Positions 2 through 19,051 of a DNA stretch of 64,000 bases are shown here, one piece after another. Made by a program: the position numbers and the translations under genes. Position 1 is the first letter of the stretch. Every line of letters starts with the position of its first letter. The stretch is taken from NCBI RefSeq assembly GCF_036227405.1, contig NZ_CP109473.1, positions 4,898,001 through 4,962,000 of the forward strand, given 5' to 3'. The DNA comes from Streptomyces sp. NBC_01460. GTDB taxonomy: Bacteria; Actinomycetota; Actinomycetes; Streptomycetales; Streptomycetaceae. The notes under the pieces were generated by a model. The model saw nothing but the letters and a program-made list of their open reading frames with translations. It had not been told where the DNA came from and made no database searches.

Positions 2-379
2 ATCCCGGTCTCCGTCGTCTGGCTGATGCTGGTCGCCACCGTCAGGGCGATGAACAACGAGGGCTACGACTACTCCAAGATCCTGCTCTACGTCGCCGGA
101 GCCGTGATCGGGGTCCTGCTGATCTCCTTCGTCGCCGACATCTTCCGCGACCGGAGGACCAAGGCCGCCGAGGAGGCGGCCGGACCCGAGCCGGCGTTCG
201 ACCCGATGGCGGGCGGATATCCGGTGCCCCCGCTGCCGGGCCAGTCCCTGCCGCCGGTGCCGCGCCGTACGCCCCGACGGGAGCGGGAGCTCGTCGTCAG
301 CGGCGGGCCGGACACCCGGAGCGACGACCTGGCGAGTGACGGAAGTGCGAGTGACGGAAGGGAGGCCGACGGTGTCTGA
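2..379 (+). CDS. nuoH: NADH-quinone oxidoreductase subunit H, C-terminal part (runs off the window)
   Basis: This is the last 125 residues of the complex I membrane subunit that helps form the quinone chamber; the rest lies before the window. The frame is open from base 2 with no start. A final membrane helix (about residues 35-55 of the fragment) is followed by a Pro/Arg-rich cytoplasmic tail of about 70 residues, longer than the E. coli tail but usual in actinobacteria. It overlaps the next gene by 8 bases, and nuoI to nuoN follow in standard order, which supports the identity. An internal ATG at 26 is not the real start, because the homologous sequence continues upstream of it. Confidence 0.93.
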
Positions 380-968
380 GTCATCGGACCCCTCAGGGGA
401 GAAGTTCCAGAATCCTGTGGCCGGCTTCGGCGTGACCTTCAAGGCCATGTTCAAGAAGCGGCTGACGGAGCAGTACCCGGAGACGCAGAAGGTGACGGCG
501 CCGCGCTTCCACGGGCGGCACCAGCTCAACCGCCACCCGGACGGGCTGGAGAAGTGCGTCGGCTGCGAGCTCTGCGCCTGGGCGTGTCCGGCGGACGCGA
601 TCTACGTGGAGGGCGCGGACAACACCGACGAGGAGCGCTACTCCCCGGGGGAGCGCTACGGCCGCGTCTACCAGATCAACTACGCGCGCTGCATCCTGTG
701 CGGGCTCTGCATCGAGGCGTGCCCCACCCGGGCACTGACCATGACGAACGAGTTCGAGCTCGCCAACACCACCCGCGAGAGCCTCATCTACACCAAGGAC
801 GAGCTGCTCGCGGGGCTGGAGGAAGGCATGGTCGACAGCCCCCACGCGATCTTCCCCGGCATGGACGAACAGGACTACTACCGCGGTCTGGTGACCGAGG
901 CGGCTTCCGGTACGGAGCGCCAGGTCGCCGTCTCCAAGGGAGAAGCGGACAAGGAGGTGGACGCATGA
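372..968 (+). CDS. nuoI: NADH-quinone oxidoreductase subunit I (two 4Fe-4S clusters)
   Basis: This 198-residue peripheral-arm subunit carries electrons between clusters N6a/N6b and N2. Two CxxCxxCxxxCP motifs are intact: Cys62/65/68/72 and Cys107/110/113/117. GTG at 372 was chosen because GGGAGG lies about 7 bases upstream; an in-frame ATG at 336 would lie deep inside nuoH and has no ribosome site. The gene overlaps nuoH by 8 bases and nuoJ by 4, so translation is probably coupled. The charged C-terminal tail beyond residue 150 is typical of actinobacterial NuoI. Confidence 0.95.
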
Positions 969-1816
969 CCGCCGCCCTGGCCGCTGCCACCGCCACCTCG
1001 ACCGGCGAGGCCGTCCAGTTCTGGATCCTCGGCACCGTCGCCGTCATCGGCGCGCTCGCGACCGTCCTCATGAAGAAGGCGGTGCACAGCGCGCTGTCGC
1101 TCGCCGGCACCATGATCGTGCTGGCGGTCTTCTACCTCGCCAACGGTGCCTACTTCCTGGGCATCGTCCAGGTCGTCGTCTACACCGGCGCGATCATGAT
1201 GCTGTTCCTCTTCGTGGTCATGCTCGTCGGTGTCACGGCGGCGGACTCGCTGAAGGAGACCCTCAAGGGACAGCGGTGGCTGGCCGCCGCCTGCGGGCTC
1301 GGCTTCGGCATCCTGCTGATCGCCGGCATCGGGCAGGCGTCCCTGTCCACCTTCAACGGCCTGGGGACGGCGAACGCCCGGCACGGCGGCAACGTCGAGG
1401 GCCTCGCCAACCTCATCTTCACCAAGTACGTCTTCGCGTTCGAGATCACCGGCGCCCTGCTGATCACGGCGACCGTCGGGGCGATGCTGCTCACCCACCG
1501 CGAGCGCACCGAGCGCGCGAAGACGCAGCGGGAGCTCTCCCACGAGCGGGTGCGCAGCAGCCACCTCCCGCCCCTGCCCGCCCCCGGTGTCTACGCCCGG
1601 CACAACGCCGTGGACATCGCGGGACTGCTGCCGGACGGCACCCCGTCCGAGCTCACCGTCATGCAGACGCTGCGGCAACGCGGCCAGATCCGCGACGTGT
1701 CCAGCGAAGCGCTCGCCGACCTCAAGGCGCTGGAACAGCGCTCGGGGGAGCGGCTCGGACGTGACCGCGGGCCGGCCCGTGACCACGCGGAAGAAGAGGA
1801 GGAGGTCGCCAAGTGA
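965..1816 (+). CDS. nuoJ: NADH-quinone oxidoreductase subunit J
   Basis: This is a 283-residue membrane subunit of complex I. About five hydrophobic helices span residues 15-175, including the conserved stretch [20 protein letters not shown], which contains the pi-bulge region of the TM3 helix. A hydrophilic tail of about 100 residues follows, as is usual in actinobacteria. ATG at 965 overlaps the nuoI stop as ATGA. The tail ends in a Glu-rich run, and its stop overlaps the nuoK GTG. Confidence 0.94.
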
Positions 1817-2112
1817 ATCCGGTCAACTACCTCTACCTCGCGGCCCTTTTGTTCACGATCGGCGCCTCCGGCGTCCTGATCAGGCGGAACGCGATCGTGG
1901 TGTTCATGTGCATCGAGCTGATGCTCAACGCCTGCAACCTCACGCTCGTCGCGTTCTCCCGGATGCACGGCAACCTCGACGGCCAGATCATCGCCTTCTT
2001 CACGATGGTCGTCGCCGCCGCGGAGGTCGTCATCGGGCTCGCGATCATCGTGTCGCTGTTCCGCTCCCGCCACTCGGCCTCGGTCGACGACGCCAGCCTG
2101 ATGAAGCTGTAA
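1813..2112 (+). CDS. nuoK: NADH-quinone oxidoreductase subunit K
   Basis: This 99-residue three-helix membrane subunit belongs to the proton-translocation chain. Glu35 and Glu71 match the two conserved membrane glutamates (E. coli Glu36 and Glu72). The length equals the family norm. GTG at 1813 overlaps the nuoJ stop, and GAGGAGG lies just upstream, which fixes the start. Confidence 0.95.
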
Positions 2113-2124
2113 GGGGTCGGAATC

Positions 2125-4020
2125 GTGGAAAACCTGATTGCGCTGCTCGTCGCGGCGCCCCTGCTCGGAGCGGCGGTCCTGCTCTGCGGAGGCCGCCGGC
2201 TCGACCGGGCCGGACACTGGATCGGCACGGTGCTCGCCGCCGCGTCGTTCGTCATCGGCGCCGTGCTGTTCACCGACATGCTGGGCAGGGGCGCCGAGGA
2301 CCGCGCCCTGCACCAGCACCTGTACAGCTGGATCCCCGTCGAGGGGTTCCAGGCCGACGTGGCCTTCCAGCTCGACCAGCTGTCGATGACGTTCGTCCTG
2401 CTGATCACCGGTGTGGGCACGCTGATCCACATCTACTCCATCGGCTACATGGAGCACGACGAGCGGCGACGCCGCTTCTTCGGCTACCTGAACCTCTTCC
2501 TCGCGGCGATGCTGATCCTGGTCATCGCCGACAACTACCTGCTGCTGTACGTCGGGTGGGAGGGCGTCGGTCTGGCGTCGTACCTGCTCATCGGCTTCTG
2601 GCAGCACAAGCCCAGCGCGGCCACCGCCGCCAAGAAGGCCTTCCTGGTCAACCGGGTCGGCGACATGGGCCTGTCGATCGCGATCATGCTGATGTTCACC
2701 ACCTTCGGCACCTTCGCCTTCGGGCCGGTGCTGGAGGCGACCGGGGACACGAGCGAGGGCAAGCTCACCGCGATCGGCCTGATGCTGCTCCTCGCGGCCT
2801 GCGGAAAGTCGGCCCAGGTGCCGCTGCAGTCCTGGCTCGGTGACGCGATGGAGGGCCCGACCCCGGTCTCGGCCCTCATCCACGCCGCCACCATGGTGAC
2901 CGCGGGCGTCTACCTGATCGTCCGCTCCGGAGCGATCTTCAACGGGGCCCCCGACGCCCAGCTGGTCGTCGTGGTCGTCGGCGCGGTCACGCTGATCTTC
3001 GGTGCGGTCGTCGGTTGCGCCAAGGACGACATCAAGAAGGCCCTCGCCGGGTCGACGATGTCGCAGATCGGCTACATGATCCTCGCCGCGGGCCTCGGCC
3101 CGATCGGCTACGTCTTCGCGATCATGCACCTCGTGACGCACGGCTTCTTCAAGGCCGGTCTCTTCCTCGGCGCCGGCTCGGTCATGCACGGCATGAACGA
3201 CGAGGTCGACATGCGGAAGTACGGCGGCCTGCGGACGTACATGCCGGTCACCTTCGTCACCTTCGGCCTCGGCTACCTCGCGATCATCGGCTTCCCCGGC
3301 CTGTCCGGCTTCTTCTCCAAGGACATGATCATCGAGGCGGCCTTCGCCAAGGGCGGCACCGAGGGCTGGATCCTCGGCTCCGTCACCCTGCTGGGCGCCG
3401 CGATCACCGCGTTCTACATGACGCGCGTGATGCTGCTGACGTTCTTCGGCGAGAAGCGCTGGCAGCCGGACGCGGAGGGCCACGAGCCCCACCCGCACGA
3501 GTCACCGAAGTCCATGACGATCCCGATGATCGTGCTGGCCTTCGGGTCGGTCTTCGCCGGAGGCTTCTTCTCCATCGGCGACCGCTTCCTGCACTGGCTG
3601 GAGCCCGTCACCGGGCACGACCACGGACACGCCCCGGTCAGCGCGACCACCGTCACCGCCGCCACCATGGTGGTGCTCGTCATCGGTGTCGCCGTCGCCT
3701 GGGCCATGTACGGGCGCAGGCCCGTCCCGGCCGTCGCCCCGCGCGGCTCGCTGCTCACCAGGGCGGCCCGCCGGGACCTCCTCCAGGACGACTTCAACCA
3801 CGTGGTCCTGGTCCGCGGCGGCGAGCACCTCACCCGCTCCCTGGTCTACGTCGACCACACCCTGGTCGACGGCGTCGTCAACGGCACGGCCGCCTCGATG
3901 GGCGGGCTCTCCGGCCGGCTGCGCAAGCTGCAGAACGGCTACGCCCGCTCCTACGCGGTCTCGATGTTCGGCGGTGCGGCGGTCCTCATCGCCGCGACCC
4001 TGCTGATGAGGGCGGTCTGA
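2125..4020 (+). CDS. nuoL: NADH-quinone oxidoreductase subunit L (antiporter-like)
   Basis: This 631-residue subunit is the most distal proton pump of complex I, with about 15 membrane helices and a C-terminal lateral-helix region (about residues 480-631). The conserved TM5 glutamate is in [15 protein letters not shown] near residue 143, and the TM7 lysine is in [20 protein letters not shown] near 228, followed by [13 protein letters not shown] at 2125 lies 12 bases past nuoK, with AAGGGG upstream. Length and motifs are normal. Confidence 0.95.
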
Positions 4021-7320: not shown

Positions 7321-7375
7321 TAGGCGGCGCCTATGGTTGCTGTGGACGGGTGAAGACGGACGGACGGGCGCGACC

Positions 7376-9355
7376 ATGAGTGTGACGACCGAGAGCGCTG
7401 CGCAGCAGACGCTGCACCGGGTGTTCGGGTACGAGGCGTTCCGCGGCGAGCAGGGCGCCGTGATCGAGCATGTCGTCGAGGGCGGCGACGCGGTCGTGCT
7501 CATGCCCACCGGCGGTGGCAAGTCCCTCTGCTACCAGATCCCCGCCCTGGTCAGGCGGGGGACCGGCATCGTGATCTCCCCGCTGATCGCGCTCATGCAG
7601 GACCAGGTCGACGCCCTGCGGGCGCTCGGCGTCCGCGCGGGCTTCATGAACTCCACGCAGGACTTCGACGAGCGCCGCTCGATGGAGGCCCAGTTCGTCG
7701 CCGGTGAGCTCGACGTGCTGTACCTGGCCCCCGAGCGGCTGCGCCTCGACTCGACGCTCGCCCTCCTGGCCCGCGGTGAGATCTCCGTCTTCGCCATCGA
7801 CGAGGCGCACTGCGTCGCCCAGTGGGGCCACGACTTCCGCCCGGACTACCTGGCGCTGTCCGTGCTGGGGGAGCGCTGGCCCGGCGTGCCCCGCATCGCG
7901 CTGACGGCCACGGCGACCGATGCCACGCACCAGGAGATCACCCAGCGCCTGGGCATGCCCGACGCCAGGCACTTCGTGGCCAGCTTCGACCGGCCCAACA
8001 TCCAGTACCGCATCGTGGGGAAGTCCGACCCGAAGAAGCAGCTGCTCACCTTCCTCAAGGAGGAGCACGCGGGGGACGCCGGCATCGTCTACTGCCTCTC
8101 GCGCAATTCGACGGAGAAGACCGCCGAGTACCTCAGCCGCAACGGCATCGAGGCCGTGCCCTACCACGCGGGGCTGGACGCGGGGACGCGCGCCGCCCAC
8201 CAGTCGCGCTTCCTGCGCGAGGAGGGCCTGGTCGTCGTCGCGACCATCGCGTTCGGCATGGGCATCGACAAGCCCGACGTGCGCTTCGTCGCCCACCTCG
8301 ACCTGCCCAAGTCCGTCGAGGGCTACTACCAGGAGACGGGCCGCGCGGGGCGTGACGGAGCACCGTCCACGGCCTGGATGGCGTACGGCCTCCAGGACGT
8401 CGTGCAGCAGCGCAAGCTGATCCAGGGCGGCGAGGGCGACGAGGCGTTCCGGCGCCGTGCGGCCTCGCACCTCGACTCGATGCTGGCGCTCTGCGAGACC
8501 GTCCAGTGCCGCCGCGCCCAGCTCCTGACGTACTTCGGCCAGGAGCCCGGCGAGCAGGCCTGCGGCAACTGCGACACCTGCCTCACCCCGCCCGAGACCT
8601 GGGACGGCACGGTGGTCGCCCAGAAGCTGCTGTCGACCGTGGTCCGGCTGAAGCGGGAGCGGAACCAGAAGTTCGGGGCCGGCCAGATCATCGACATCCT
8701 GCTGGGCCGCAAGACCGCGAAGACCATCCAGTTCGACCACGACCAGCTCTCGGTCTTCGGCATCGGCGAGGAGCTGGCCGAGGCGGAGTGGCGGGGCGTC
8801 GTGCGCCAGCTGCTGGCCCAGGGCCTGCTGGCCGTCGAGGGCGAGTACGGCACGCTGGTGCTGACGGAGGAGAGCGGCTCCGTGCTCGGGCGGGAGCGCG
8901 AGGTCCTGCTCCGCAAGGAGCCGAAGAAGCCCACGACGCGGTCCGGCGGCTCGGGCGAGCGCAAGGCCAAGTCCGCGGCGGCCGTGGCCGACCTCCCCGC
9001 CGAGGCCGTCCCGGTCTTCGAGGCGCTGCGCGCCTGGCGCGGGGCGACGGCGAAGGAGCTGGGCCTCCCGGCGTACGTGATCTTCCACGACGCGACGCTG
9101 CGGGAGATCGCGGCCCTGCGTCCGGGCTCCCTCGCGGAGCTCGGCGGGGTCAGCGGCCTCGGCGAGAAGAAGCTCGCGACGTACGGTGAGGGAGTGCTGG
9201 AGGTGCTGGCGGGGCTGGGAGACACGGCCCCCGCCGCCGCTCCGGAAGCGCCCCCCGCACCGGCGGCCGGGACCTCCGTGCCGACTGCCCGGCCCGCCGT
9301 CCAGGACGCGGACCCGGAGTTCGGCTGGGACGAGGAGCCGCCGGAGTTCGAGTGA
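7376..9355 (+). CDS. recQ: ATP-dependent DNA helicase RecQ
   Basis: This 659-residue 3'-5' helicase acts in recombination and fork repair. Walker A TGGGKS lies near residue 45 and the DEAH box IDEAHC near 140. The second RecA-like domain ends with [14 protein letters not shown] four-cysteine RQC zinc site (ending CGNCDTC) lies near 375-405, a winged-helix region follows, and an HRDC domain sits at about 545-612. The Pro/Ala-rich tail ends in acidic residues. ATG at 7376 gives the usual N-terminus; a TTG at 7337 in the same frame is possible but has no supporting homologous residues. Confidence 0.93.
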
Positions 9356-9368
9356 GCCGGGGCCGGGT

Positions 9369-9977
9369 CTACTCCGGCTTCGCCGCCCGGCGGCGCGAGA
9401 CGATCGCGGTCAGATCCAGGTCCACGGTGAAGGGCGTCGAGACCTTCATCCGGTCGTGGAAGATCCCCGTGGACGTGTAGGCGCCGGTCGCGGGCTCCAG
9501 CTCGAAGACGTAGACCACCGCCGCGCCGTCCTGGTTCTCCACCCGCCAGTAGTGCGGGATCCTCGCCCGCGCGTACTTCACGGGCTTGGTCTCCCGGTCA
9601 CGGGTGACGGACTCGTCGGACACCACCTCGATCGCGAGCAGCACACTGCTCGCGGGGAACCGTGTCTGCCGCAGGCTCTCGACCGCGTCGGCGCGCACGA
9701 CGACGACATCGGGTTCCGGCCGGTTCTGGAAGTCGACGTCGATGGTGAATTCGCGAAAGACCTCGAGGTCGAGCGGTGCGAGTGACTGCAACTGCCACTT
9801 CAGGTAGTCGATCGCGCGCTCGTGGAAAACGGTCTGCGGACTCACGAAAACCAGGCTCCCGTCGATCAGCTCCGTGTGCGGAGGCAGATTCGGGAGTGTG
9901 TCCAGGTCATCGGCGGTCCAGCCGCCCACGGGCGGAACCGCCCACCTCGGCTCAGGTGCCTCGGGTCCGACGCTCAT
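9369..9977 (-). CDS. Uma2-family (DUF820) putative PD-(D/E)XK protein
   Basis: This 202-residue protein belongs to the Uma2 family, a restriction-endonuclease-like fold that is abundant in Streptomyces and cyanobacteria and has no settled function. Family hallmarks are visible: an N-terminal segment (YLKWQLQSLA region), EPDVVVV as the acidic metal-site motif, LAIEVVSDES as the second motif, and KYARARIPHYWRV near the end. ATG at 9977 has GGGAG five bases upstream; an ATG at 9989 is also in frame. It is convergent with recQ, 13 bases apart. The catalytic acid residues look present, but activity is only inferred. Confidence 0.85.
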   Translation of the reverse strand: MSVGPEAPEPRWAVPPVGGWTADDLDTLPNLPPHTELIDGSLVFVSPQTVFHERAIDYLKWQLQSLAPLDLEVFREFTIDVDFQNRPEPDVVVVRADAVESLRQTRFPASSVLLAIEVVSDESVTRDRETKPVKYARARIPHYWRVENQDGAAVVYVFELEPATGAYTSTGIFHDRMKVSTPFTVDLDLTAIVSRRRAAKPE

Positions 9978-10062
9978 CAGTGCTCCCATGGGACGAAGTC
10001 TCGCGGGTCCGTTCAGCGTATCCGGCGAGAACAGACCAGGGCCGCCCACACGTGTGAGCGAC

Positions 10063-12783
10063 TTACGCGTCGTTGACCAACGCCCCTCTGGCCGCATACG
10101 CGCGCACGTCCGCGTCCGGGTCCGTGAGCACCCCGGCCAGAGCCTCCCGGGCCGCGTCGTGGGACGTGTGGTTCAGCAGCGCCAGCACCGCCGCCTTCCG
10201 GACGTCGGCGTTCGGGTCGGCCAGTGCCCCGGTCAGCGGGGCGAGTGCGTGGACCGGTTCGGCCGAGGAGAGCGCCGTCGCCGCCCCCGCCCTGACCTGC
10301 CAGGCCGGATCGGCGAGGGCTGTGACCGCCCTGGTGGCGAAGGGCTCCGGGCACCCCGTCGCCGCCAGCGCCCCCAGGGCGGCCGCCCGCACCAGCAGGT
10401 CCGGGTCGGACAGCAGCGGAGCCAGCGGTTCCGGGCCGGGGGAGCGGGTGGCCGCCAGCCCCTTCGCGACGGCCACCCGGACCTCGCGGGACGGGTCCGT
10501 CACGGCCCCGGCCAGCAGGTCCGTGGCGTCCACCGAGACCAGGGCGCTCACCGTGTGGACGCGTACGTCGATGTCGGCGTCGCCGAGCGTGCCCGCGAAC
10601 AGCTCCGCGTCCCCCAGCCGCAGTGCCCGAAGGGTGTCCAGCGCCGTGGCCCGTACGACCGGGTCCTCCGAGCCCAGCGCCTCCACCAGCGGTTCGCGCA
10701 GGGCCGGTTCGGCCGGCAGCACCTCGACCAGCTCCCGCAGGGAGGCCGCCGCCGCCGCCCGCACGGACGGCACCGGGTCCGCGAGCCTCGCCGCCAGCGC
10801 CGGTCCCGCGCCCCGGGGCGTCGACTCGGTCAGCGCGGCCACCGCGGCCCGCCGGACCGCCGGGTCGGAGTCGCCCAGATACGGGGCGAGATCCGACAGC
10901 TCCGGCTGGTCCTCCGCCAGCGCGAGGAGTCCGAGGATGCGGGGGGAGGGCCCGGCCGACGGGGCGGCGGCGGCCCCGGCGCGGACGGTCACCGGGGAAC
11001 CGGACGGGGCGGACTCCTTCGCCCCGGCCGTCGCCACCTGCTCCGCCTCGACCTCGCCGAGCTCCCTGGAGGCCCCGCCGACAGGGTCGAACCCGTCCAC
11101 CGGCACCAGGTACGGCGCCACCGGCCTGGCCGTGAACTCCATCGCACCCGACGCCGACCTGCGCAGGTCGAGGTGGTGGAACCACTCGGTGTCGTCGCGC
11201 TCCGGATGGTCCGTACGCTCGTGGTACAGGCCCCAGCGGGACTCCGTCCGGGCCAGCGAGGAGCGCGCCGCCATCTCCGCGCAGTCCCGGATGAAGCTCA
11301 CCTCCGCGCACCGCATCAGCTCGTGCGCGGTGGTCGCCCCCATCTCCGCGATGTCCGTGCGCATCCGCTCGAAGTGCTCCAGCGCGAGCGAGAGCCGGGC
11401 CCCCGACTTCGGCGGGGCCACGTAGTCGTTCACGAAGCGGCGCAGCTTGTACTCGACCTGGGTCTGCGGGGGCCCCTCCGGATTCCGCAGAGGCCGGTAG
11501 ACCAGCTCGTGGGCCTCCCGCAGCTGCTCCGCGGGCAGCTCGCCCTCGTACGCCGTGTACCGCGAGGCGTCGGCGCCCGCGAGGTCGCCGTAGACGAACG
11601 CGCCGATCATGTAGTTGTGCGGGACGCAGGCCAGGTCCCCGGCCGCGTAGAGGCGGGGCACCGTCGTGCGGGCGTGGTCGTCGACGCGGACCCCGGAGGC
11701 CGAGTGGCCGCCGCACAGACCGATCTCGGAGATGTGCATCTCGATGTCGTGGGTGCGGTAGTCGTGGCCCCGGTTCGCGTGGAACGTGCCCCGGGTCGGC
11801 CGCTCCGTGGAGTGCAGGATGCCCTCCAGCGCGCTGACGGACTCCTCGGGCAGGTGGCTCAGCTTCAGGTACACCGGCCCGCGGTCCGAAGCGACCTCCG
11901 CCGCGAACTCGGACATCATCTGCCCCGACCAGTAGTCGGAGTCGACGAACCGCTCGCCGTGCCGGTTCACCTGGTAGCCGCCGAAGGGATTGGCGACGTA
12001 GGCGCAGGCCGGCCCGTTGTAGTCCTTGATCAGCGGATTGATCTGGAAGCACTCGATGCCGGTCAGTTCGGCGCCCGCGTGGTAGGCCATGGCATAGCCG
12101 TCGCCCGCGTTGGTGGGGTTCTCGTACGTCCCGTAGAGGTACCCCGAGGCGGGCAGACCGAGCCGCCCGCAGGGGCCGGTGGCCAGGACGACGGCCCCGG
12201 CGCGCACGGTGACGAACGCGCCGGTACGGGTGTTGAAGGCCGCCGCGCCGATCGCCCGGCCGTCGTCGCCCGTGAGGATCCGGACCGGCATCACCCGGTT
12301 CTCGATGCGGATCCTCTCCCGCATCTCCCGGCGCCGCAGCTGCCGGTAGAGGACCTTCTTGACGTCCTTGCCCTCGGGCATCGGCAGCACGTACGAGCCG
12401 GAGCGGTGCACCTGGCGCACGGCGTACTCCCCGTGCTCGTCCTTCTCGAACTTCACCCCGTACGACTCCAGCCGCCGCACCATCCCGTACCCCCGCACCG
12501 CCGTCTGCCGGACGGTGGACTGGTCGACGATGCCGTCGTTGGCCCGGGTGATCTCGGCGACGTAGTCGTCGGGTTCGGCCCGGCCCGGGATCACCGCGTT
12601 GTTCACCCCGTCCATGCCCATGGCGAGGGCGCCCGAGTGGCGGACGTGCGCCTTCTCCAGCAGCAGGACGGAGGAGCCGTGCTCGGCGGCGGTGAGCGCG
12701 GCCATCGTGCCGGCCGTGCCGCCCCCCACGACCAGTACGTCGCAGGAGAGTTCCTCGGCGTCGGCGAGGGCGGGGATCTGCAC
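10063..12783 (-). CDS. AprA/fumarate-reductase-like FAD oxidoreductase fused to HEAT repeats
   Basis: This is a 906-residue protein. Residues 1 to about 560 form an FAD oxidoreductase of the succinate dehydrogenase/fumarate reductase/APS reductase class: the dinucleotide motif VVGGGTAGTMAA is near residue 15, followed by HSGALAMGMDGVNN (like the SGAVA..G..A.N segment of AprA) and a C-terminal FAD segment YAAGDLACVPHNYM. Residues from about 600 to the end hold nine HEAT-like repeats of about 31 residues, each with a DP..xVR.AA..AL core. GTG at 12783 lies 2 bases after the ATPase stop, so it is the last gene of the operon. The paired ferredoxin upstream is the likely electron partner. The substrate is unknown; annotation as a plain fumarate reductase is probably wrong. 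Confidence 0.85.
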   Translation of the reverse strand: MQIPALADAEELSCDVLVVGGGTAGTMAALTAAEHGSSVLLLEKAHVRHSGALAMGMDGVNNAVIPGRAEPDDYVAEITRANDGIVDQSTVRQTAVRGYGMVRRLESYGVKFEKDEHGEYAVRQVHRSGSYVLPMPEGKDVKKVLYRQLRRREMRERIRIENRVMPVRILTGDDGRAIGAAAFNTRTGAFVTVRAGAVVLATGPCGRLGLPASGYLYGTYENPTNAGDGYAMAYHAGAELTGIECFQINPLIKDYNGPACAYVANPFGGYQVNRHGERFVDSDYWSGQMMSEFAAEVASDRGPVYLKLSHLPEESVSALEGILHSTERPTRGTFHANRGHDYRTHDIEMHISEIGLCGGHSASGVRVDDHARTTVPRLYAAGDLACVPHNYMIGAFVYGDLAGADASRYTAYEGELPAEQLREAHELVYRPLRNPEGPPQTQVEYKLRRFVNDYVAPPKSGARLSLALEHFERMRTDIAEMGATTAHELMRCAEVSFIRDCAEMAARSSLARTESRWGLYHERTDHPERDDTEWFHHLDLRRSASGAMEFTARPVAPYLVPVDGFDPVGGASRELGEVEAEQVATAGAKESAPSGSPVTVRAGAAAAPSAGPSPRILGLLALAEDQPELSDLAPYLGDSDPAVRRAAVAALTESTPRGAGPALAARLADPVPSVRAAAAASLRELVEVLPAEPALREPLVEALGSEDPVVRATALDTLRALRLGDAELFAGTLGDADIDVRVHTVSALVSVDATDLLAGAVTDPSREVRVAVAKGLAATRSPGPEPLAPLLSDPDLLVRAAALGALAATGCPEPFATRAVTALADPAWQVRAGAATALSSAEPVHALAPLTGALADPNADVRKAAVLALLNHTSHDAAREALAGVLTDPDADVRAYAARGALVNDA

Positions 12784-12785
12784 GG

Positions 12786-13541
12786 TCAGGCCTTTCCATG
12801 GGCGGAAGTGAGCGATTCGAGGACCTCGCGGCGCAGCGCGACGGTCGCCGGATCGGTGTGCGCGGCGCGTTCCCGCGGGCGGGGCACGTCCAGGACGCGT
12901 CCGGTGGGCAGCAGCGCCACCCGGTCGCCCAGGAACAGGGCCTCGTCCACGTCGTGCGTGACGAAGACGACCGTGGCGCCCGTGCCCCGCAGGACGTCGA
13001 CGAGCAACTGCTGCATCCCGGCCCTGGTCTGGGCGTCCAGCGCGCCGAACGGTTCGTCCATCAGGACCGCGCGCGGCTCGGCCGCCAGCGCGCGGGCCAG
13101 CTGGACGCGCTGGCGCTGGCCGCCCGAGATCCGGTGGGGGAGCTTCGTGCCGTGGCCGTCCAGGCCTACCCGGGCCAGCCAGGACTCGGCGCGTGCCCTG
13201 CGGGCGCCGCGCGGGACGCCCCTGATGGCCAGCGGGAGTTCGACGTTGGCCCGCACCGTGCGCCACGGCAGCAGCGCGTCGTCCTGGAAGACGAGGGCGC
13301 GCTCGGCCCGGGGCGCGGTGATCGCCTCGCCGTCCTGGGCGACCTCGCCGCCGAGGGCGGGCAGCAGCCCCGCCAGGGTGCGCAGGAGCGTGGACTTGCC
13401 GCAGCCGGACGGCCCGACGACGGCCAGGATCTCGCCGGGCACGACGTCGAGGTCGACGCCGTCCAGCACCGGGGCCCCGGCCCGGCCGAGCACGGCGCCG
13501 CGCAGCGTCAGCCGGACTCCCGGGGGAGTGGTCGTGGTCAT
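12786..13541 (-). CDS. ABC transporter ATP-binding protein (SsuB/TauB/NrtD type)
   Basis: This 251-residue ATPase would power import of a small anion such as a sulfonate, nitrate or related compound. Walker A GPSGCGKST is at 43-51, the Q-loop at FQDDALLPW (85-93), the signature ISGGQ at 138-142, Walker B AVLMDE at 158-163, and the H-loop in FVTHDVDEA. The sequence fits the nitrate/sulfonate/taurine ATPase family. ATG at 13541 overlaps the permease stop (ATGA), and AAGGAG lies about 11 bases upstream. Specificity cannot be read from the ATPase. Confidence 0.92.
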   Translation of the reverse strand: MTTTTPPGVRLTLRGAVLGRAGAPVLDGVDLDVVPGEILAVVGPSGCGKSTLLRTLAGLLPALGGEVAQDGEAITAPRAERALVFQDDALLPWRTVRANVELPLAIRGVPRGARRARAESWLARVGLDGHGTKLPHRISGGQRQRVQLARALAAEPRAVLMDEPFGALDAQTRAGMQQLLVDVLRGTGATVVFVTHDVDEALFLGDRVALLPTGRVLDVPRPRERAAHTDPATVALRREVLESLTSAHGKA

Positions 13542-14404
13542 GGGTGCACCCGCTCCTTCGCCAGGGGTACCGGTGCCGCCACCGGGGGTTCCGGCCGCGT
13601 CCGGTGCCGTACGGGGGGCGGAGGGCGGCTGCCCTCCGTGCGCGGCAGCCACCGGGTGAGCCGGCGGCCCAGCAGCTCCACCGCGGTCGAGGTGATCCAC
13701 CCCAGCAGGCCGATCGTGACCATGCCGACGAAGACCCCCGGGTAGTCGACGACCGTGTAGTCCTGCCAGGTGCGGTAGCCGACCCCGTACTCCCCGGAGA
13801 TCATCTCGGCGGAGATCACGCAGATCCACGACACCCCGATGCCGACGGAGAGCCCGCCGAGGATGCCGGGGAGCGCGCCGGGCAGGACGACCGAGCCGAG
13901 GATCCGCCACCGGCCGCCGCCCATCGTCAGGACGGCCTCCTCCCACACCGGGGTGAGCGCACGCACCGCGTGCCGGGTGGAGACCATGACGGGGAAGAAC
14001 GCCGCGGTGCAGGTGATGAAGACGATGCCCTGCTCGTTGCTGGGGAAGAGCAGGATCGCCACGGGCACCAGGGCGATCGCCGGGACGGGGCGCACCACCT
14101 CCAGGACGGGGCCCAGCAGGTCCGAGACCAGCCGCGAGCGGGCGATCGCCGTGCCGGCCGTGATGCCGAGGACGGCGGCCAGGGCGAAGCCGGTGACGAT
14201 CCGGGTCAGACTGTCGGTGAGGTCCTGCCAGTACGCGTCACCGCCCAGCCGGTCACCGAACGCACGGGCCACGTCGGTCACCGTGGGGAACTGCTCGAAG
14301 CGCAGCCACAGAGTGACGTCGTAGGAGGTCAGCGCCTGCCAGATGCCCAGGGCGGCCACCAGCGACAGCGCCCGCCGCACGAGCGACCACCGTCGCCCCC
14401 TCAT
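13538..14404 (-). CDS. ABC transporter permease (SsuC/TauC/NrtB type)
   Basis: This is a 288-residue inner-membrane permease with about six helices. The EAA-type coupling loop EEAVLTMGGGRWRILGSVVLPGALPGI sits at about 188-214. The family is BPD_transp_1 of the nitrate/sulfonate/taurine importers. ATG at 14404 overlaps the binding-protein stop by 4 bases. The C-terminal 35 residues are Arg/Pro-rich and cytoplasmic. It works with the ATPase and the lipoprotein encoded on either side. Confidence 0.92.
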   Translation of the reverse strand: MRGRRWSLVRRALSLVAALGIWQALTSYDVTLWLRFEQFPTVTDVARAFGDRLGGDAYWQDLTDSLTRIVTGFALAAVLGITAGTAIARSRLVSDLLGPVLEVVRPVPAIALVPVAILLFPSNEQGIVFITCTAAFFPVMVSTRHAVRALTPVWEEAVLTMGGGRWRILGSVVLPGALPGILGGLSVGIGVSWICVISAEMISGEYGVGYRTWQDYTVVDYPGVFVGMVTIGLLGWITSTAVELLGRRLTRWLPRTEGSRPPPPVRHRTRPEPPVAAPVPLAKERVHP

Positions 14405-15774
14405 GAGGCGCGGGCCAGACCGAGCGCGGTGGCGTACGGGACGGTCCGGGAGCCGGGGTGCGCCGCGACGTCCGCGCGGGCGGCCGACTCCGTGACGTAC
14501 GGCCTCAGCTCCCCGGCGTCCTCCACCCAGACCGCACGGTCCGCGAACCACAGGGTCCCGGTGCCCGCGTCGGGGACGTACGCGGCGCGGACCCTTCCCT
14601 CGTGCCCGGCGGCGTACCGCAGGACCTCGGTGGGAGTGGCGAACGCCGACGTGGTGTCCTCGCCCTTCAGCCAGACCTCGCCGCCGCGTGCGGCCGGCGG
14701 TCCGGCGGCCCGGGCCTTCGCGTAGGCGGAGCCGTACACACGCTTCACGTACTGCTCGTCGACGAAGGAGTCGACGTCCACGTCCCCGACGAGCTTCGCC
14801 GAACGCAGCACGGGGACGTCCTTCTCGAGCGCGGCCACCAGTGCGGGCTTCACCGTCGTGTCGAACGTCGCGATGCCCTGGGCGCCGTTGTAGAGGTGGA
14901 CGACCTCGGCCGGCAGGCCCGTCGCCTTCGCCACCGACTCGGAGGCCGCCACCGGGTGCGCGTGCAGGTACTCCGTCGCCCGGCCCTGCGCCCGGAGGAA
15001 GTCCTCCAGCACGGCGGGCCGCTTCTTGGCGAAGTCCTCGACGACGGTGACCCCGTGGAACGTCGGAAGATTCAGCTCCGCCCCGTCGTAGAGCGCCTTC
15101 GCCCGGCCCTGGAACGCCAGCAGTCCGGGCCAGGCCACGAACTGGGACAGGGCGTCCGCGCTGCCGGCCTGGAGGGCCGACGCGCCCACCGCGGGCTGCT
15201 GGTTGAGCTTGCGGATGTCCTTCTCCGGGTCGAGCCCGGCCTGCTGGAGCGCGCGGACGAGCGTCCCGTCCGCGGCCGAACCGACGCTCGTGGAGACCTT
15301 CCTGCCGCGCAGGTCCTTCAGGGAGCGGAGCTTCGAATCAGCCGCGGTCACCACGGTGTTGAGGCCGCCGCGCAGGTTGTAGCCGGTGACCGAGACCAGC
15401 TTGGTCGGGCGGCCCAGCTGTGTGCCACGGGCGGCGTTGATCAGCAGGGGGAAGTCGCCCATCGAGCCGATGTCGATCTTTCCCGCCGTCATCTGGGCGG
15501 TGATCGGGGCGCCGGTCGCGTAGTCCTGCCACTTCACCTCGTACGTGACGCCGTCCCGCTCGCCGCGGGCCCGCAGCTCGTCCTCGAAGTAGCCCAGCGA
15601 GCGCAGCAGCGTGCCCGCCGTGACGGTGTTGATGGTCCTGGACTGATAGCCGACGGTCACCGTGACCGTGCCGTCGTCACCCGCGCTCGCCTCGCCTCCG
15701 CAGCCCGCCGTGAGCGGGACGAGCAGCGCGGGGGCCAGCAGGGCGCCGGCCGTACGGATTGCCGTGCGTCGCAT
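14401..15774 (-). CDS. ABC transporter substrate-binding lipoprotein with NosL-like C-terminal extension
   Basis: This 457-residue exported lipoprotein has the lipobox LTAGC, with Cys25 as the lipidation site. Residues about 38-345 form a SsuA/NrtA-type periplasmic-binding fold (VTVGYQSRTINTVTAGTL start, MTAGKIDIGSMGDFPLL core, then LKDLRGRKVSTSVGSAADG). Residues from about 365 to the end are not part of that fold. They resemble NosL-type domains in pattern (a FATPTEVLRY-like start, AAYVPD, then a WV and AARADVAAHPGS end), but they lack the Cys/Met pair of NosL. Ligand unknown. The gene follows the ferredoxin by 15 bases. Confidence 0.88.
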   Translation of the reverse strand: MRRTAIRTAGALLAPALLVPLTAGCGGEASAGDDGTVTVTVGYQSRTINTVTAGTLLRSLGYFEDELRARGERDGVTYEVKWQDYATGAPITAQMTAGKIDIGSMGDFPLLINAARGTQLGRPTKLVSVTGYNLRGGLNTVVTAADSKLRSLKDLRGRKVSTSVGSAADGTLVRALQQAGLDPEKDIRKLNQQPAVGASALQAGSADALSQFVAWPGLLAFQGRAKALYDGAELNLPTFHGVTVVEDFAKKRPAVLEDFLRAQGRATEYLHAHPVAASESVAKATGLPAEVVHLYNGAQGIATFDTTVKPALVAALEKDVPVLRSAKLVGDVDVDSFVDEQYVKRVYGSAYAKARAAGPPAARGGEVWLKGEDTTSAFATPTEVLRYAAGHEGRVRAAYVPDAGTGTLWFADRAVWVEDAGELRPYVTESAARADVAAHPGSRTVPYATALGLARAS

Positions 15775-15789
15775 GGGAGGAGGGGCCTT

Positions 15790-16017
15790 TCACCGGAGGA
15801 GGTAGGGCATGTTGACCGTGACCGCGTCGGTGGGACACCTGGCCGCGCACGGGCCGCAGTACCAGCACTCGTCGACGTGCATGAACGCCTTGCCGCTGTC
15901 CGGGTGGATGGCCAGGGAGTCGAGCGGACACATGTCGACGCAGAGGGTGCAGCCGTCGATGCACTTGGACTCGTCGATGGTCACGGGCACGTCGGCCCGC
16001 TGGGGCGCCAGAGGCAT
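15790..16017 (-). CDS. AprB-like 2x[4Fe-4S] ferredoxin
   Basis: This is a 75-residue dicluster ferredoxin. Cysteines are at 19/23/26/30 (a Cx3Cx2Cx3CP first motif) and 51/54/57/61. The first motif, the KAF..V.ECWYCGPC run and the terminal PY resemble the ferredoxin core of the APS reductase beta subunit more than a NuoI or bacterial Fdx. ATG at 16017 has GGAG six bases upstream. It lies between the GntR gene and the importer, in the same operon as the AprA-like flavoprotein, so it is probably that protein's electron partner. Confidence 0.88.
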   Translation of the reverse strand: MPLAPQRADVPVTIDESKCIDGCTLCVDMCPLDSLAIHPDSGKAFMHVDECWYCGPCAARCPTDAVTVNMPYLLR

Positions 16018-16082
16018 GGCGGTCTCCAGGAAAGAGGGGATACGTCCGGGAAAGGGGAAAGGAAGGACAGAAGGGAGGGGGC

Positions 16083-16853
16083 TCAGTCGGACCGGTGCAG
16101 CAGTCCGCTCATGCTGATGCGGTCGCCGCGGAAGCGGATGAACTCCAGGTCCACGGGGCGGCCGTCACGGAGGTGGGTGAGCCGTTCCAGCATCAGGACG
16201 GCGGAGCCCTGCGGGGTCTCCAGGACGGCGGCGGAGTGCGCGTCGGCGTTGACGGCCTCCATGGTGATCTCGGCGGTGCCGAGCGGCTGCCCGGTGAGGC
16301 TCTCCAGCAGCCGGAAGACGTCGGTGTTCTCCAGGTCGCAGCCGAGGAGACCGGCCCCGATGTCCATGGGCACGTAGGTGAGGTCGAGGGAGAGCGGCAG
16401 CCCGTTCAGCAGCCTCCGCCGCTCGATGTAGAGCACGTCGGTGTGGACCGCGATCCGCAGCCGCCGTGCGACGGGGCCCGGCGCGGGCACCGGGCCGACG
16501 GTACGGACCTCGTTGGTGACCCGGCCGTGCTCGCGGAGGGTCTCGGCCAGGCCCTGGAGCCGGTCGAGGCGGTGCGGGTACCTCTCGCTGACGACGACGG
16601 TGCCGACGCCCGGCTGCCGTTCCACGAGGCCCTCGGCGCGCAGCAGGTCCAGGGCCTGGCGGACGGTGTTGCGCGAGACGCGGTAGTCGCTGCCGATCGC
16701 GTCCTCGAAGGGCAGCACCCCGCCCGGGAAGCCGCCGGTCCGCACCTGGTGGCGCAGCAGGTCGGCGAGCAGCCGCGCATGGTCCGCGCGCAGCCGGCGC
16801 CGACGGGCGGCGGCGACGGGCACGGTGTGCTCACGGGTGCGTTCGGCTGGCAT
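16083..16853 (-). CDS. GntR-family (HutC/UTRA) transcriptional regulator
   Basis: This is a 256-residue regulator. The N-terminal winged helix (about 20-90) contains DYRVSRNTVRQALDLLRAEG followed by the wing RQPGVGTVV, and the C-terminal UTRA ligand-binding domain spans about 105-250. It is the first gene of the minus-strand operon that includes the ferredoxin and importer, and it probably responds to the imported compound. ATG at 16853 or 16865 are both possible; neither has a strong ribosome site. Its promoter region carries a direct repeat that could be its operator. Confidence 0.88.
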   Translation of the reverse strand: MPAERTREHTVPVAAARRRRLRADHARLLADLLRHQVRTGGFPGGVLPFEDAIGSDYRVSRNTVRQALDLLRAEGLVERQPGVGTVVVSERYPHRLDRLQGLAETLREHGRVTNEVRTVGPVPAPGPVARRLRIAVHTDVLYIERRRLLNGLPLSLDLTYVPMDIGAGLLGCDLENTDVFRLLESLTGQPLGTAEITMEAVNADAHSAAVLETPQGSAVLMLERLTHLRDGRPVDLEFIRFRGDRISMSGLLHRSD

Positions 16854-16886
16854 GCGCTGGACCATACCGACGGGGTCCACACGGTG

Positions 16887-16905
16887 GTGTTGCGACAGTG
16901 TTGCG
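16887..16905. promoter_or_regulatory. Direct repeat upstream of the GntR gene (possible operator)
   Basis: GTGTTGCG occurs at 16887-16894 and again at 16898-16905, an 11-base period that places both copies on the same DNA face. It sits just upstream of the GntR start codons. GntR operators are usually palindromes, so assignment as the operator is tentative. Confidence 0.35.
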
Positions 16906-17012: not shown

Positions 17013-17696
17013 TCAGTCGCCGTCGCCGCTTCCGCCGCCGCCCCCGCCGGCCCCACCGCCGGCCTGGGATGCCTTGTCCTGGCGCACGTTGCGGTGCACC
17101 GCGAGCGGCGGCCCCTCCTCTCGGGCCAGCGCCCGCGCCGCCGCGCGTGTGCGGTGGTCGCCCTGCCGCACCACCGACGGCAGCTCGACCGCCGCGGCCA
17201 GGCCCGCGAGCAGCCGGCCCCTGCGGTCCGGGTATCCGGCCGCGCGGGACGCCTCGAAGCGCTGCCGCACCTGCTCCGCCGGGGAGGCGGAGCCGGAGGG
17301 ATGCCGGTGGTAGGGGAACAGGCCGAGGAAGCGGCGCGTCTCCCTGCGCAGGACGCCCCGCTCCACCAGGGCGTCCAGGTACAGCCCTTCGGCCCGCCGT
17401 CCCACCTGCCGCACCCAGCCCCTCGCGGACACCCCCGAACCGAACCGGCTCTTGCCGGGCGGCGGGAGGCTCCGCAGGAACACCGCGAGCAGCGCGTCCG
17501 GCGGGTCCAGCGGATTCACGACCACCACCCGTCCGCGCTCCTGCGCCGTCCGGCCCTGCAGCTCCAGCTCCGCCAGGACGGCGCCGGCGATCCCGTACGC
17601 GAGGAACCGGCCGCGGCAGTACGGCCTTCCGTGTACGGGGTCCAGGGCGAGCAGCAGCAGCTCCTCGGGGAGCGTGGGCGTGACGTCGTCGCTCAC
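17013..17696 (-). CDS. GPP34 (GOLPH3/Vps74-like) family protein
   Basis: This 227-residue protein belongs to the GPP34 phosphoprotein family, eukaryotic members of which bind PI4P and sort Golgi enzymes; Streptomyces have many copies of unknown function. The family start LPEELLLLALDPVHGRPYC and the GIAGAVLAELELQGR helix are clear, as is VLRRETRRFLGLFPYHRHP in the middle. A Gly-rich tail of about 20 residues is unusual. GTG at 17696 overlaps the fumarylacetoacetase stop (GTGA), so the pair is co-translated. Confidence 0.85.
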   Translation of the reverse strand: MSDDVTPTLPEELLLLALDPVHGRPYCRGRFLAYGIAGAVLAELELQGRTAQERGRVVVVNPLDPPDALLAVFLRSLPPPGKSRFGSGVSARGWVRQVGRRAEGLYLDALVERGVLRRETRRFLGLFPYHRHPSGSASPAEQVRQRFEASRAAGYPDRRGRLLAGLAAAVELPSVVRQGDHRTRAAARALAREEGPPLAVHRNVRQDKASQAGGGAGGGGGGSGDGD

Positions 17697-18919
17697 GCCG
17701 AGGCCGTGATCCGTCCGGTGACCTCACCGAGCCCGACCCGCGTGCCGTGCGGTCCCGGCGCCCAGGCGGTCAGGGTGACGGTGTCGCCGTCCTCCAGGAA
17801 CGTCCGCTTCCCCTCGGCGAGATCCAGCGGATCGCGCCCGTTCCACGTGAGTTCGAGCAGGGAGCCGCGCTGCCCGGGCTCCGCGCCGCTGACGGTGCCG
17901 GAACCGTAGAGGTCGCCCGTGCGCAGCGAGGCGCCGTTCACCGTCATCTGGGCCAGCTGCTGCGCCGCCGTCCAGTACATGGTCGAGAACGGGGGCTCGG
18001 AGACGGTCTGCCCGTTGATCTCCACCGAGATCCGGATGTCGAAGCCGCCCGGCTCCTCGTCGTCCGCGTCCTCCAGGTAGGGGAGCAGCGCGACGTCACG
18101 GGCGGGGGCCGTGCGGGCCGCGTCCAGGGCCTCCAGCGGGGTGACCCAGGCCGACACGGACGTGGCGAAGGACTTGCCGAGGAAGGGGCCCAGCGGCACG
18201 TACTCCCAGGCCTGGATGTCCCGCGCGGACCAGTCGTTGAGCAGGGAGAGCCCGAAGACGTGCTCGCGGAAGTCGGAGAGCGGCACCGGGGAGCCCTGCG
18301 TGGAGGGGACACCCACCACGAAGCCGACCTCGGCCTCGATGTCCAGCTTCACCGAGGGGCCGAAGACGGGGGCGGGGTCGGACGGCGCCTTGCGCTGCCC
18401 GGAGGGGCGCACCACGTCCGTGCCGGAGACGACGACCGTGCCGGCCCGCCCGTGGTAACCGATCGGCAGGTGCTTCCAGTTGGGGGTGAGCGCCGCCCCG
18501 TCGGGACGGAAGATCCTCCCCACGTTGGTGGCGTGGTGCTCGCTGGCGTAGAAGTCGACGTAGTCCGCGACCTCGTACGGCAGATGGAGGGTCACCGAGT
18601 CGAGCGGGTGCAGCAGCGGCTCCAGCTGCGGGCGGTGCGACGGCACCGTCACCCACGCCGTCAGCGCCCTGCGCACATCCCGCCAGGCGGTGCGCCCCGC
18701 CGCCAGCAGCGGCATCAGGCTCGGCTGCGCCAGCAGTCTGGCGTACGGCGAACCGAGGGCGTGCGCCGCCGCTCCGGCGTCCAGCACATGTCCGCCGACG
18801 CGGACTCCGACCCTTCGGTCCTCGGGGTGCCCGGGGGTGGAGAACACGCCGTACGGAAGGTTGTGCGGACCGAAGGGATCGCCCTCGGCCAGGTCGAGCG
18901 GGCTGCTCTGCTCGGGCAT
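17693..18919 (-). CDS. fahA: Fumarylacetoacetase
   Basis: This 408-residue enzyme hydrolyses fumarylacetoacetate to fumarate and acetoacetate, the last step of tyrosine and homogentisate breakdown. It has the N-terminal FAH domain (FGPHNLPYGVFSTPG), and the metal-site region around YVDFYASEHHATNVGRIFRP, DIEAEVGFVVG and LLNDWSARDIQAWEY is intact. Length matches the family. ATG at 18919 has GGAAAGGGG upstream. It is the first gene of a pair with the GPP34 gene; no homogentisate dioxygenase lies nearby. Confidence 0.94.
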   Translation of the reverse strand: MPEQSSPLDLAEGDPFGPHNLPYGVFSTPGHPEDRRVGVRVGGHVLDAGAAAHALGSPYARLLAQPSLMPLLAAGRTAWRDVRRALTAWVTVPSHRPQLEPLLHPLDSVTLHLPYEVADYVDFYASEHHATNVGRIFRPDGAALTPNWKHLPIGYHGRAGTVVVSGTDVVRPSGQRKAPSDPAPVFGPSVKLDIEAEVGFVVGVPSTQGSPVPLSDFREHVFGLSLLNDWSARDIQAWEYVPLGPFLGKSFATSVSAWVTPLEALDAARTAPARDVALLPYLEDADDEEPGGFDIRISVEINGQTVSEPPFSTMYWTAAQQLAQMTVNGASLRTGDLYGSGTVSGAEPGQRGSLLELTWNGRDPLDLAEGKRTFLEDGDTVTLTAWAPGPHGTRVGLGEVTGRITASA

Positions 18920-19051
18920 CTGTCGCTGCCCCTTTCCAGTCGCTTGAGGAACACGGTACGTCGGCGTCGCCGGTCGGCGGCAGTGCCTCAAGTAGGCGTA
19001 ATGCCCGGAAAGTTACGTGATAACCCTGCTCGACCCGCCGTGCGGGCCGGG

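What the first reader, a model, noticed from the sequence alone, without database searches (positions are those of the whole stretch)
10063..16853. Candidate uncharacterised AprAB-like redox and import system
Six minus-strand genes run with 2-4 base overlaps or short gaps: GntR/UTRA regulator, AprB-like ferredoxin, SsuA-type lipoprotein, permease, ATPase and an AprA-like FAD protein. Sequence shows the flavoprotein shares the SGALAMG...N segment and layout of APS reductase alpha, and the small ferredoxin shares the KAF..ECW.C pattern of APS reductase beta. Inference: an aerobic system that imports a sulfur- or nitrogen-containing anion and oxidises or reduces it in the cytoplasm. It has no sulfite-transfer or sulfate-activation gene beside it, so it is not ordinary sulfate assimilation.
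Basis: partly seen in the sequence, partly recalled or inferred. Interest (0 to 1): 0.78.

Follow-up and report, generated by a model that had tools for sequence, protein, structure and literature searches.

The report
Orphan AprA-like enzyme with sulfonate-type importer
A conserved six-gene operon of soil bacteria pairs a sulfonate-type importer with a flavin/iron-sulfur enzyme that databases call fumarate reductase but that is a sister of the sulfate-pathway enzyme AprAB with a different active site, and it may be an untested way of using organic sulfur.

Summary
The six minus-strand genes are real. NCBIfam calls the protein fumarate reductase/succinate dehydrogenase. Profile scores, a 26-row tree, the nearest solved structure (a PAPS reductase) and the predicted fold instead put it beside AprA. 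It is not an APS/PAPS reductase: it keeps the Asn74 and His398 equivalents but has Leu and Met for Arg265 and Arg317. The succinate-dehydrogenase residues are replaced too. It is not the Asf-type pair of Cupriavidus metallidurans CH34. Gene order holds in 48 of 51 actinobacterial loci; equivalent clusters occur in Pseudomonadota and cyanobacteria. Sulfur context: the binding protein is nearest to SsuA and TauA; metX plus O-acetylhomoserine sulfhydrylase lie near it in one cyanobacterium and one actinobacterium; SfnB-, SsuD-, LLM- or TauD-like genes lie near 12 of 91 loci, so most lack them. Best reading: import of an organosulfur anion, then AprA-type flavin chemistry linked to ferredoxin. Substrate, direction and product are inferred. 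Ten searches of an open-access library found no functional description. New variant of a known kind.

The parts
16083..16853 (-). GntR/UTRA regulator, first gene of the operon
   Evidence: PF00392 and PF07702; ATG and TGA read
15790..16017 (-). 75-aa 2[4Fe-4S] ferredoxin, AprB-like without the C-terminal tail; eight Cys and the Trp of ECW.C invariant in nine aligned members
14401..15774 (-). SsuA/TauA-like substrate-binding lipoprotein (457 aa)
   Evidence: PF09084; TIGR01728 131 bits, below its cut-off of 163.5; nearest solved 2x26 SsuA
13538..14404 (-). ABC permease
   Evidence: PF00528; ATGA overlap read
12786..13541 (-). ABC ATPase
   Evidence: PF00005; ATGA overlap read
11089..12783 (-). 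FAD domain of the flavoprotein (residues 1-565), AprA sister
   Evidence: PF00890 and PF02910; NF006131 857 bits, cut-off 587; tree; fold
10063..10944 (-). C-terminal HEAT-repeat domain of the flavoprotein (from about residue 614)
   Evidence: PF13646 and PF02985; helices 614-903 in the model; the separate HEAT protein of Cupriavidus matches profile positions 633-896
16887..16904 (-). candidate operator: direct repeat GTGTTGC-N4-GTGTTGC (sequence as on the + strand)
   Evidence: only match in the window with up to 2 mismatches, 0.27 expected; exact in 9 of the 20 Streptomyces loci L138-L157; conserved block
16861..16866 (-). TATGGT, conserved -10-like hexamer just before the GntR start
   Evidence: alignment of upstream regions

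Best explanation
A sulfur-source acquisition operon. The lipoprotein, permease and ATPase import an oxyanion of the sulfonate class. Ferredoxin and FAD-HEAT protein form an AprAB-like complex in which electrons pass between two [4Fe-4S] clusters, a tryptophan and FAD, and the flavin acts on the imported organosulfur compound, most likely reductively, so that its sulfur can enter cysteine/methionine synthesis as sulfite. The HEAT part is a scaffold or maturation partner. The GntR/UTRA protein senses the substrate or a product. Shown: gene set and its conservation, AprA-sister ancestry, the altered pocket, the HEAT fusion. Inferred: substrate class, reductive direction, sulfite as product, the roles of HEAT and regulator.
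For: AprA-sister clade and fold. Asn74, Lys267, Asp268, His398 kept; Arg265, Arg317, Trp234, Gly274 changed in 230 of 230 sequences (frame-picking caveat in Tried and rejected). AprB-like ferredoxin with the Trp. Fixed gene order in 48 of 51 loci, and binding protein in 69, permease in 67, ATPase in 74 of 89 loci mostly of other phyla. Solved kin of the binding protein are SsuA and TauA. metX and O-acetylhomoserine sulfhydrylase near it in Nostoc and Nonomuraea; SsuD in Nonomuraea; SfnB-like, NtaA/DmoA and SsuA genes in Cupriavidus; TauE/SafE or TSUP genes in Leptolyngbya, Aquabacterium and Acinetobacter. FdxA in 16, a PRK06567-like NAD(P)H oxidoreductase in 8 and a ferredoxin-NADP reductase in 3 of 89 loci.
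Against: No substrate, phenotype or expression data. Only 12 of 91 loci have an SfnB/LLM/SsuD/TauD-like gene in the fetched flanks, and 2 of 47 Streptomyces loci; no background rate was measured. The binding protein misses the SsuA cut-off, and its family also binds non-sulfur ligands (recalled). Attack of flavin N5 on an unactivated sulfonate is chemically hard (recalled). FdxA and reductase genes show an electron link, not a direction.
Confidence: 0.45

Rival explanations
1. An electron-supply module: flavoprotein and ferredoxin feed a desulfonating oxygenase encoded elsewhere, as proposed for AsfAB in aromatic desulfonation; the flavoprotein does not touch the organosulfur substrate.
For: AsfAB is described that way (PMC4267179 passages; PMC2864759 passages). 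LLM, SsuD, TauD or SfnB-like genes lie near 12 of 91 loci.
Against: The operon itself holds no oxygenase. An AprA-type pocket kept in 230 of 230 sequences suggests a substrate of its own. 12 of the 49 genomes have no strong SsuD match.
Confidence: 0.25
2. The imported and transformed compound is not a sulfur compound (for example a nitrogen oxyanion, carboxylate or heterocycle).
For: The ATPase and permease also resemble nitrate and other importers; one solved relative of the binding protein, 3e4r, is named nitrate transport protein; most flanks hold no sulfur gene.
Against: Binding-protein matches are led by SsuA and TauA models and structures; sulfur genes lie near several unrelated clusters.
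Confidence: 0.18
3. The system is the AsfAB system of Pseudomonas putida S-313 under another name.
For: Same described layout of binding protein, ABC transporter, reductase and ferredoxin. Asf-like and PRK08275 genes are neighbours in two Sinorhizobium plasmids.
Against: CH34 is said to carry asfRAB on CHR2, which has no family member over the cut-off. Its FAD/ferredoxin pair there is a separate clade. Asf has a LysR regulator, this operon a GntR.
Confidence: 0.08
4. It is an APS or PAPS reductase used for sulfate assimilation.
For: Sister clade and best fold match.
Against: Both AprA models are far below cut-off (263 of 557 and 127 of 642 bits); Arg265, Arg317 and Gln145 equivalents replaced; other PAPS_reduct-family genes in the genome.
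Confidence: 0.02
5. It is a fumarate reductase or succinate dehydrogenase, as NCBIfam names it.
Against: The tree separates it from SdhA and NadB; E. coli SdhA H242, T254, E255, R286, H354 and R399 are replaced or fall in gaps (near H354 the alignment has a gap, and His360 could stand in).
Confidence: 0.02

Closest known systems
AprAB-type PAPS reductase of Methanothermococcus thermolithotrophicus (8a8o) and dissimilatory APS reductase (1jnr/2fja, 3gyx)
   Different: Arg265, Arg317, Gln145 and Trp234 replaced; HEAT domain fused; small subunit has no tail; an ABC importer in the operon; no activation gene among the nearest neighbours scanned
NCBIfam PRK13800 (NF010374) and PRK08275 (NF006131)
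   Same: The window protein is a full member: 1611 and 857 bits, cut-offs 1196 and 587
   Different: The family name (fumarate reductase/succinate dehydrogenase) does not fit its phylogeny or its residues
AsfAB/asfRABC aromatic desulfonation system (P. putida S-313; CH34 pair used as proxy)
   Same: Flavoprotein-ferredoxin pair with a binding protein and ABC importer, as described
   Different: Different flavoprotein clade, 111-aa ferredoxin in CH34, LysR instead of GntR regulator
SsuABC and TauABC importers
   Same: Solved kin of the binding protein: SsuA 2x26 and 3uif, TauA 6ssy
   Different: Binding protein is longer (457 aa against 308-348 in the solved SsuA/TauA kin) and below the model cut-offs

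Membership tests
NCBIfam PRK13800 (NF010374) | Score over the curated cut-off along the whole protein | tested here: met
   1611 bits, cut-off 1196, residues 1-900
APS/PAPS reductase alpha (AprA) | Score over the AprA equivalog cut-off | tested here: not met
   263.5 of 557 (PRK06854), 127.5 of 641.75 (TIGR02061)
APS/PAPS reductase alpha (AprA) | Falls inside the AprA/PAPSR clade | tested here: not met
   Sister to it: own clade 99/98, AprA clade 100/100; long-branch warning given by the program
APS/PAPS reductase alpha (AprA) | Substrate arginines 265 and 317 (roles recalled) | tested here: not met
   Leu251 and Met289 in 230 of 230 sequences
APS/PAPS reductase alpha (AprA) | Asn74 and His398 (roles recalled) | tested here: met
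   Asn61 and His360 in 230 of 230 sequences
APS/PAPS reductase beta (AprB) | Eight Cys for two [4Fe-4S] clusters and the Trp | tested here: met
   9 of 9 aligned members
APS/PAPS reductase beta (AprB) | Score over the aprB cut-off | tested here: not met
   29 of 135.65 bits
Succinate dehydrogenase/fumarate reductase | Catalytic residues (E. coli SdhA H242, R286, H354, R399; roles recalled) | tested here: not met
   Asn249, Ser, Ile and a gap in the alignment; alignment-dependent near H354
L-aspartate oxidase (NadB) | Score over cut-off and grouping with NadB | tested here: not met
   122 of 639 bits; separate in the tree
AsfA/AsfB | Groups with an AsfA sequence | tested here: inconclusive
   Outside the clade of the CH34 pair taken as AsfA; that the pair is Rmet_4334/5 is inferred; S-313 AsfA was not available
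AsfA/AsfB | Needed for growth on aromatic sulfonates as sulfur source | not testable with these tools
   Needs mutants
SsuABC/TauABC importer | Binding protein of the sulfonate class | tested here: inconclusive
   Nearest solved are SsuA/TauA but 131 of 163.5 bits for TIGR01728
GntR family with UTRA domain | GntR and UTRA domains over gathering score | tested here: met
   52.6 (cut-off 27) and 115.2 (cut-off 23.8) bits

The most novel reading that the evidence does not exclude
A third catalytic class in the AprA lineage: an FAD/[4Fe-4S] enzyme of aerobic bacteria that releases sulfur from an imported organosulfur anion by low-potential, oxygen-independent flavin chemistry, widespread in soil bacteria and hidden under the name fumarate reductase.
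Probability: 0.15. Interest if true: 0.85.

Novelty: new variant of a known kind. Interest (0 to 1): 0.6.

Why it matters
Over 95% of soil sulfur is organic (PMC4267179 abstract, seen), and the aerobic routes to sulfonate sulfur that I know of are oxygenases (recalled). Here is a conserved import-plus-redox operon found in Actinomycetota, Pseudomonadota and Cyanobacteriota whose enzyme descends from the AprA line and not from the enzyme it is named after. It turns a mislabelled family into a directly testable one, could add a non-oxygenase route to organosulfur use, and would show how the APS reductase scaffold was reused by changing its substrate pocket.

Tried and rejected
AsfAB as the identity was my first idea, from the shared layout. 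CH34 is said to carry asfRAB on CHR2; that replicon has no family member over the cut-off and its FAD/ferredoxin pair is another clade. Kept as an analogy only. No source called a relative of that pair AsfA among the 120 rows listed.

APS/PAPS reductase, fumarate reductase and L-aspartate oxidase: rejected on scores, tree and residues.

A gene-calling and clustering script gave antisense ORFs; it was replaced by tblastn with reference proteins. Those counts take a hit of over half the query anywhere in the fetched stretch (in one search over 0.3 for the operon modules), so some ATPase, permease and binding-protein hits are not in the cluster. A viral-contig scan found nothing.

reading frames of 109 loci were picked with a motif covering positions 247-254, which partly fixes those positions; the 120 database proteins in the same count (the top hits) were not picked so. 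Its ferredoxin count is circular for the same reason and is not used; one search is. The full-length AlphaFold model is weak at 245-361; the second is better but still weak at 209-225 and 248-256, part of the pocket, so no pocket geometry is claimed.

The CH34 895-kb gene of the first tree was left out of the second because I took it for a wrong frame; one search showed a genuine FrdA-like ORF with an N-terminal overrun. In one search it grouped with SdhA and NadB, and the window family was placed the same way.

Sulfur genes near some loci were noticed after the fact; no background rate was measured.

Literature: ten searches gave no functional description of PRK08275/PRK13800; the library holds open-licence papers only. 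The one paper that holds the string PRK13800 (PMC8401276) was seen in the listing alone. Of PMC4267179, PMC9694294, PMC2864759, PMC10322725, PMC7174415, PMC10504309, PMC8305402, PMC6971185 and PMC10433963 I saw passages, not whole texts.
Full report
What is there. Six genes run on the minus strand from 16853 to 10063 (window = G000:C1:4898001-4962000). The host is a Streptomyces, judged by the names of near-identical proteins. The genes encode a GntR/UTRA regulator, a 75-aa 2[4Fe-4S] ferredoxin, an SsuA-type lipoprotein, a permease, an ATPase and a 906-aa flavoprotein. Two junctions are ATGA overlaps and one is a 2-base gap (read). NCBIfam places the whole protein in PRK13800 (1611 bits, cut-off 1196) and its N-terminal part in PRK08275 (857 bits, cut-off 587).

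What the active site says. In A. fulgidus numbering, Asn74, Lys267, Asp268, His398 and Gly451 are kept. Arg265 is Leu251, Arg317 is Met289, Trp234 is Tyr220, Tyr235 is Glu221, Gln145 is Val132 and Gly274 is Cys260 in the window protein. Apart from Val132, which was not counted, these are the same in 230 of 230 family sequences (with the frame-picking caveat under Tried and rejected). The M. thermolithotrophicus paper says that the catalytic residues of APS reductase are retained in its PAPS reductase and names Gln145 as conserved in APS reductases (PMC10322725, passages). The roles of Asn74, Arg265, Arg317 and His398 are recalled. The E. coli SdhA residues H242, T254, E255, R286, H354 and R399 (roles recalled) are replaced or fall in gaps; near H354 the alignment has a gap, so His360 could stand in for it. 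The enzyme is therefore neither an APS/PAPS reductase nor a fumarate reductase but a third pocket on the AprA scaffold.

The ferredoxin. All eight cysteines and the Trp of ECW.C are invariant in nine aligned members. It is 39% identical over 71 aa to the small subunit of an AprAB-like pair in another actinobacterial genome (L137). That pair lies beside genes that I read as sulfite/nitrite-reductase-like, ThiS-like and TusA-like (those three names are my reading). The ferredoxin lacks the AprB tail and misses the aprB cut-off (29 of 136 bits). Several polyferredoxins score higher against it than AprB does.

Conservation. 49 of 150 Streptomyces genomes (own genome included) carry PRK13800 over its cut-off, and 8 of 296 genomes drawn from the phylum carry PRK08275 over its cut-off, five of them Streptomyces. 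I fetched 47 of the other 48 Streptomyces loci and three from another family of the class. With the window, 48 of 51 have all seven modules (HEAT counted apart) in the same order and strand. Two of the exceptions are cut by contig ends; in the third (L201) all modules are found but the order test failed. In those 80 and nine plasmid-collection loci tblastn finds the ferredoxin in 89 of 89, a HEAT protein in 86, GntR in 83, ATPase in 74, binding protein in 69, permease in 67, a GBBH-like/DUF971 protein in 65 and FdxA in 16; a few of the transporter hits lie outside the cluster. In all nine annotated loci outside Actinomycetota HEAT is a separate gene. In Streptomyces 47 of the 49 matches run on into the HEAT part; of the other two one stops at a contig end and one is split. 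Tsukamurella and Nonomuraea are also fused. This is Rosetta-stone evidence that the two parts touch.

Sulfur context. The solved relatives of the binding protein are SsuA (2x26, 3uif), TauA (6ssy) and 3e4r, which is named nitrate transport protein. Nostoc edaphicum pNe_5 has the flavoprotein, ferredoxin and HEAT genes with two sulfonate-type binding proteins and Mrp, and metX and O-acetylhomoserine sulfhydrylase a few kilobases on. Nonomuraea gerenzanensis has the actinobacterial form followed, on the other strand, by an SsuD-like gene (below the equivalog cut-off), O-acetylhomoserine sulfhydrylase and MetX. Cupriavidus pinatubonensis has an SfnB-like gene (223 of 431 bits), an NtaA/DmoA monooxygenase and an SsuA-type binding protein beside it. 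Sinorhizobium fredii has MsnO8 and NtaA/DmoA oxidoreductases on one side and an Asf-like stretch on the other. In S. americanum the Asf-like and PRK08275 matches lie 910 bases apart on one strand. TauE/SafE or TSUP genes occur in the Leptolyngbya, Aquabacterium and Acinetobacter stretches. Against this, 79 of 91 loci have no SfnB/LLM/SsuD/TauD-like gene in the fetched flanks, and 45 of 47 Streptomyces loci have none of the sulfur genes tested. SsuD-like genes are commoner in Streptomyces with the operon (37 of 49 against 51 of 101, Fisher 0.0045), but genome size explains part of it (odds ratio 3.0, or 2.1 stratified).

Relation to Asf. The Asf system is described as a reductase/ferredoxin pair with a binding protein, an ABC transporter and a LysR regulator, required for aromatic sulfonates (PMC4267179, passages). 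CH34 is said to carry asfRAB on its second replicon (PMC2864759, passages). That replicon has no member of the present family over the cut-off. Its FAD plus 111-aa ferredoxin pair at 928 kb (L049), which I take to be Rmet_4334/5, is a different clade. Relatives of that pair lie next to ABC-importer genes in Azospirillum (named NrtA/SsuA/CpmA type), Paenibacillus and Paracoccus. So two different flavoprotein types have been teamed with ABC importers.

Mechanism. Shown: gene set, ancestry, pocket changes, fusion, conservation. Inferred: the importer brings in a sulfonate-class anion; electrons pass between a ferredoxin/NAD(P)H system (FdxA, ferredoxin-NADP reductase or PRK06567-like genes stand in some clusters), the small ferredoxin with its Trp, and FAD; the flavin acts on the substrate at the Asn61/His360 site; sulfur leaves as sulfite. 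A less charged pocket (Leu, Met, Val, Cys) would suit an organic group where APS has its charged part. Direct N5 attack on a C-S bond is the weakest step; a better leaving group, a dehydrogenation, or electron supply to an oxygenase are open.

Regulation. A direct repeat GTGTTGC-N4-GTGTTGC lies at 16887-16904, followed by a conserved TATGGT close to the GntR start codon. It is a candidate operator.

Verdict. The sulfur reading is the best supported at about even odds. The family name in the databases is misleading.

Noticed in passing
L137 (G375, another genome of the phylum): 328-3556: A compact AprAB-like pair (812 bits to PRK06854, over cut-off) beside genes that look like a sulfite/nitrite reductase, ThiS and TusA; probably an assimilatory APS or PAPS reductase in a small genome.
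   Followed up: partly
L166, L167, L168, L169, L171: A second FAD-protein/ferredoxin pair family (the CH34 Asf-like one) next to or near ABC-importer genes in Azospirillum, Pseudonocardia, Paenibacillus, Paracoccus and Rhizobium; two tandem pairs in Paenibacillus; two SfnB genes nearby in Rhizobium etli.
   Followed up: partly
L044: 10102-14035, and L050, L052, L056, L068, L072, L119, L123: FdxA plus a large NAD(P)H oxidoreductase resembling PRK06567 near the flavoprotein cluster in Acidithiobacillus and other, partly sulfur-oxidising, lineages.
   Followed up: partly
L165: 6525-8091: Unannotated Asf-like stretch, matched by tblastn in three pieces, directly upstream of the S. fredii cluster; may be a broken gene. 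Described only.
   Followed up: no
L170: 9899-15053: In Nostoc edaphicum two HAD hydrolases, a methyltransferase, a GNAT and a VOC protein stand between flavoprotein and ferredoxin, an expanded version that may hint at the substrate.
   Followed up: no
window 9369-9980 and 17013-17696: Flanking genes on the same strand: a Uma2-family protein downstream and a GPP34 protein upstream; then RecQ (7337-9355, + strand) and a fumarylacetoacetase (17693-18991, - strand). No sulfur link seen.
   Followed up: no
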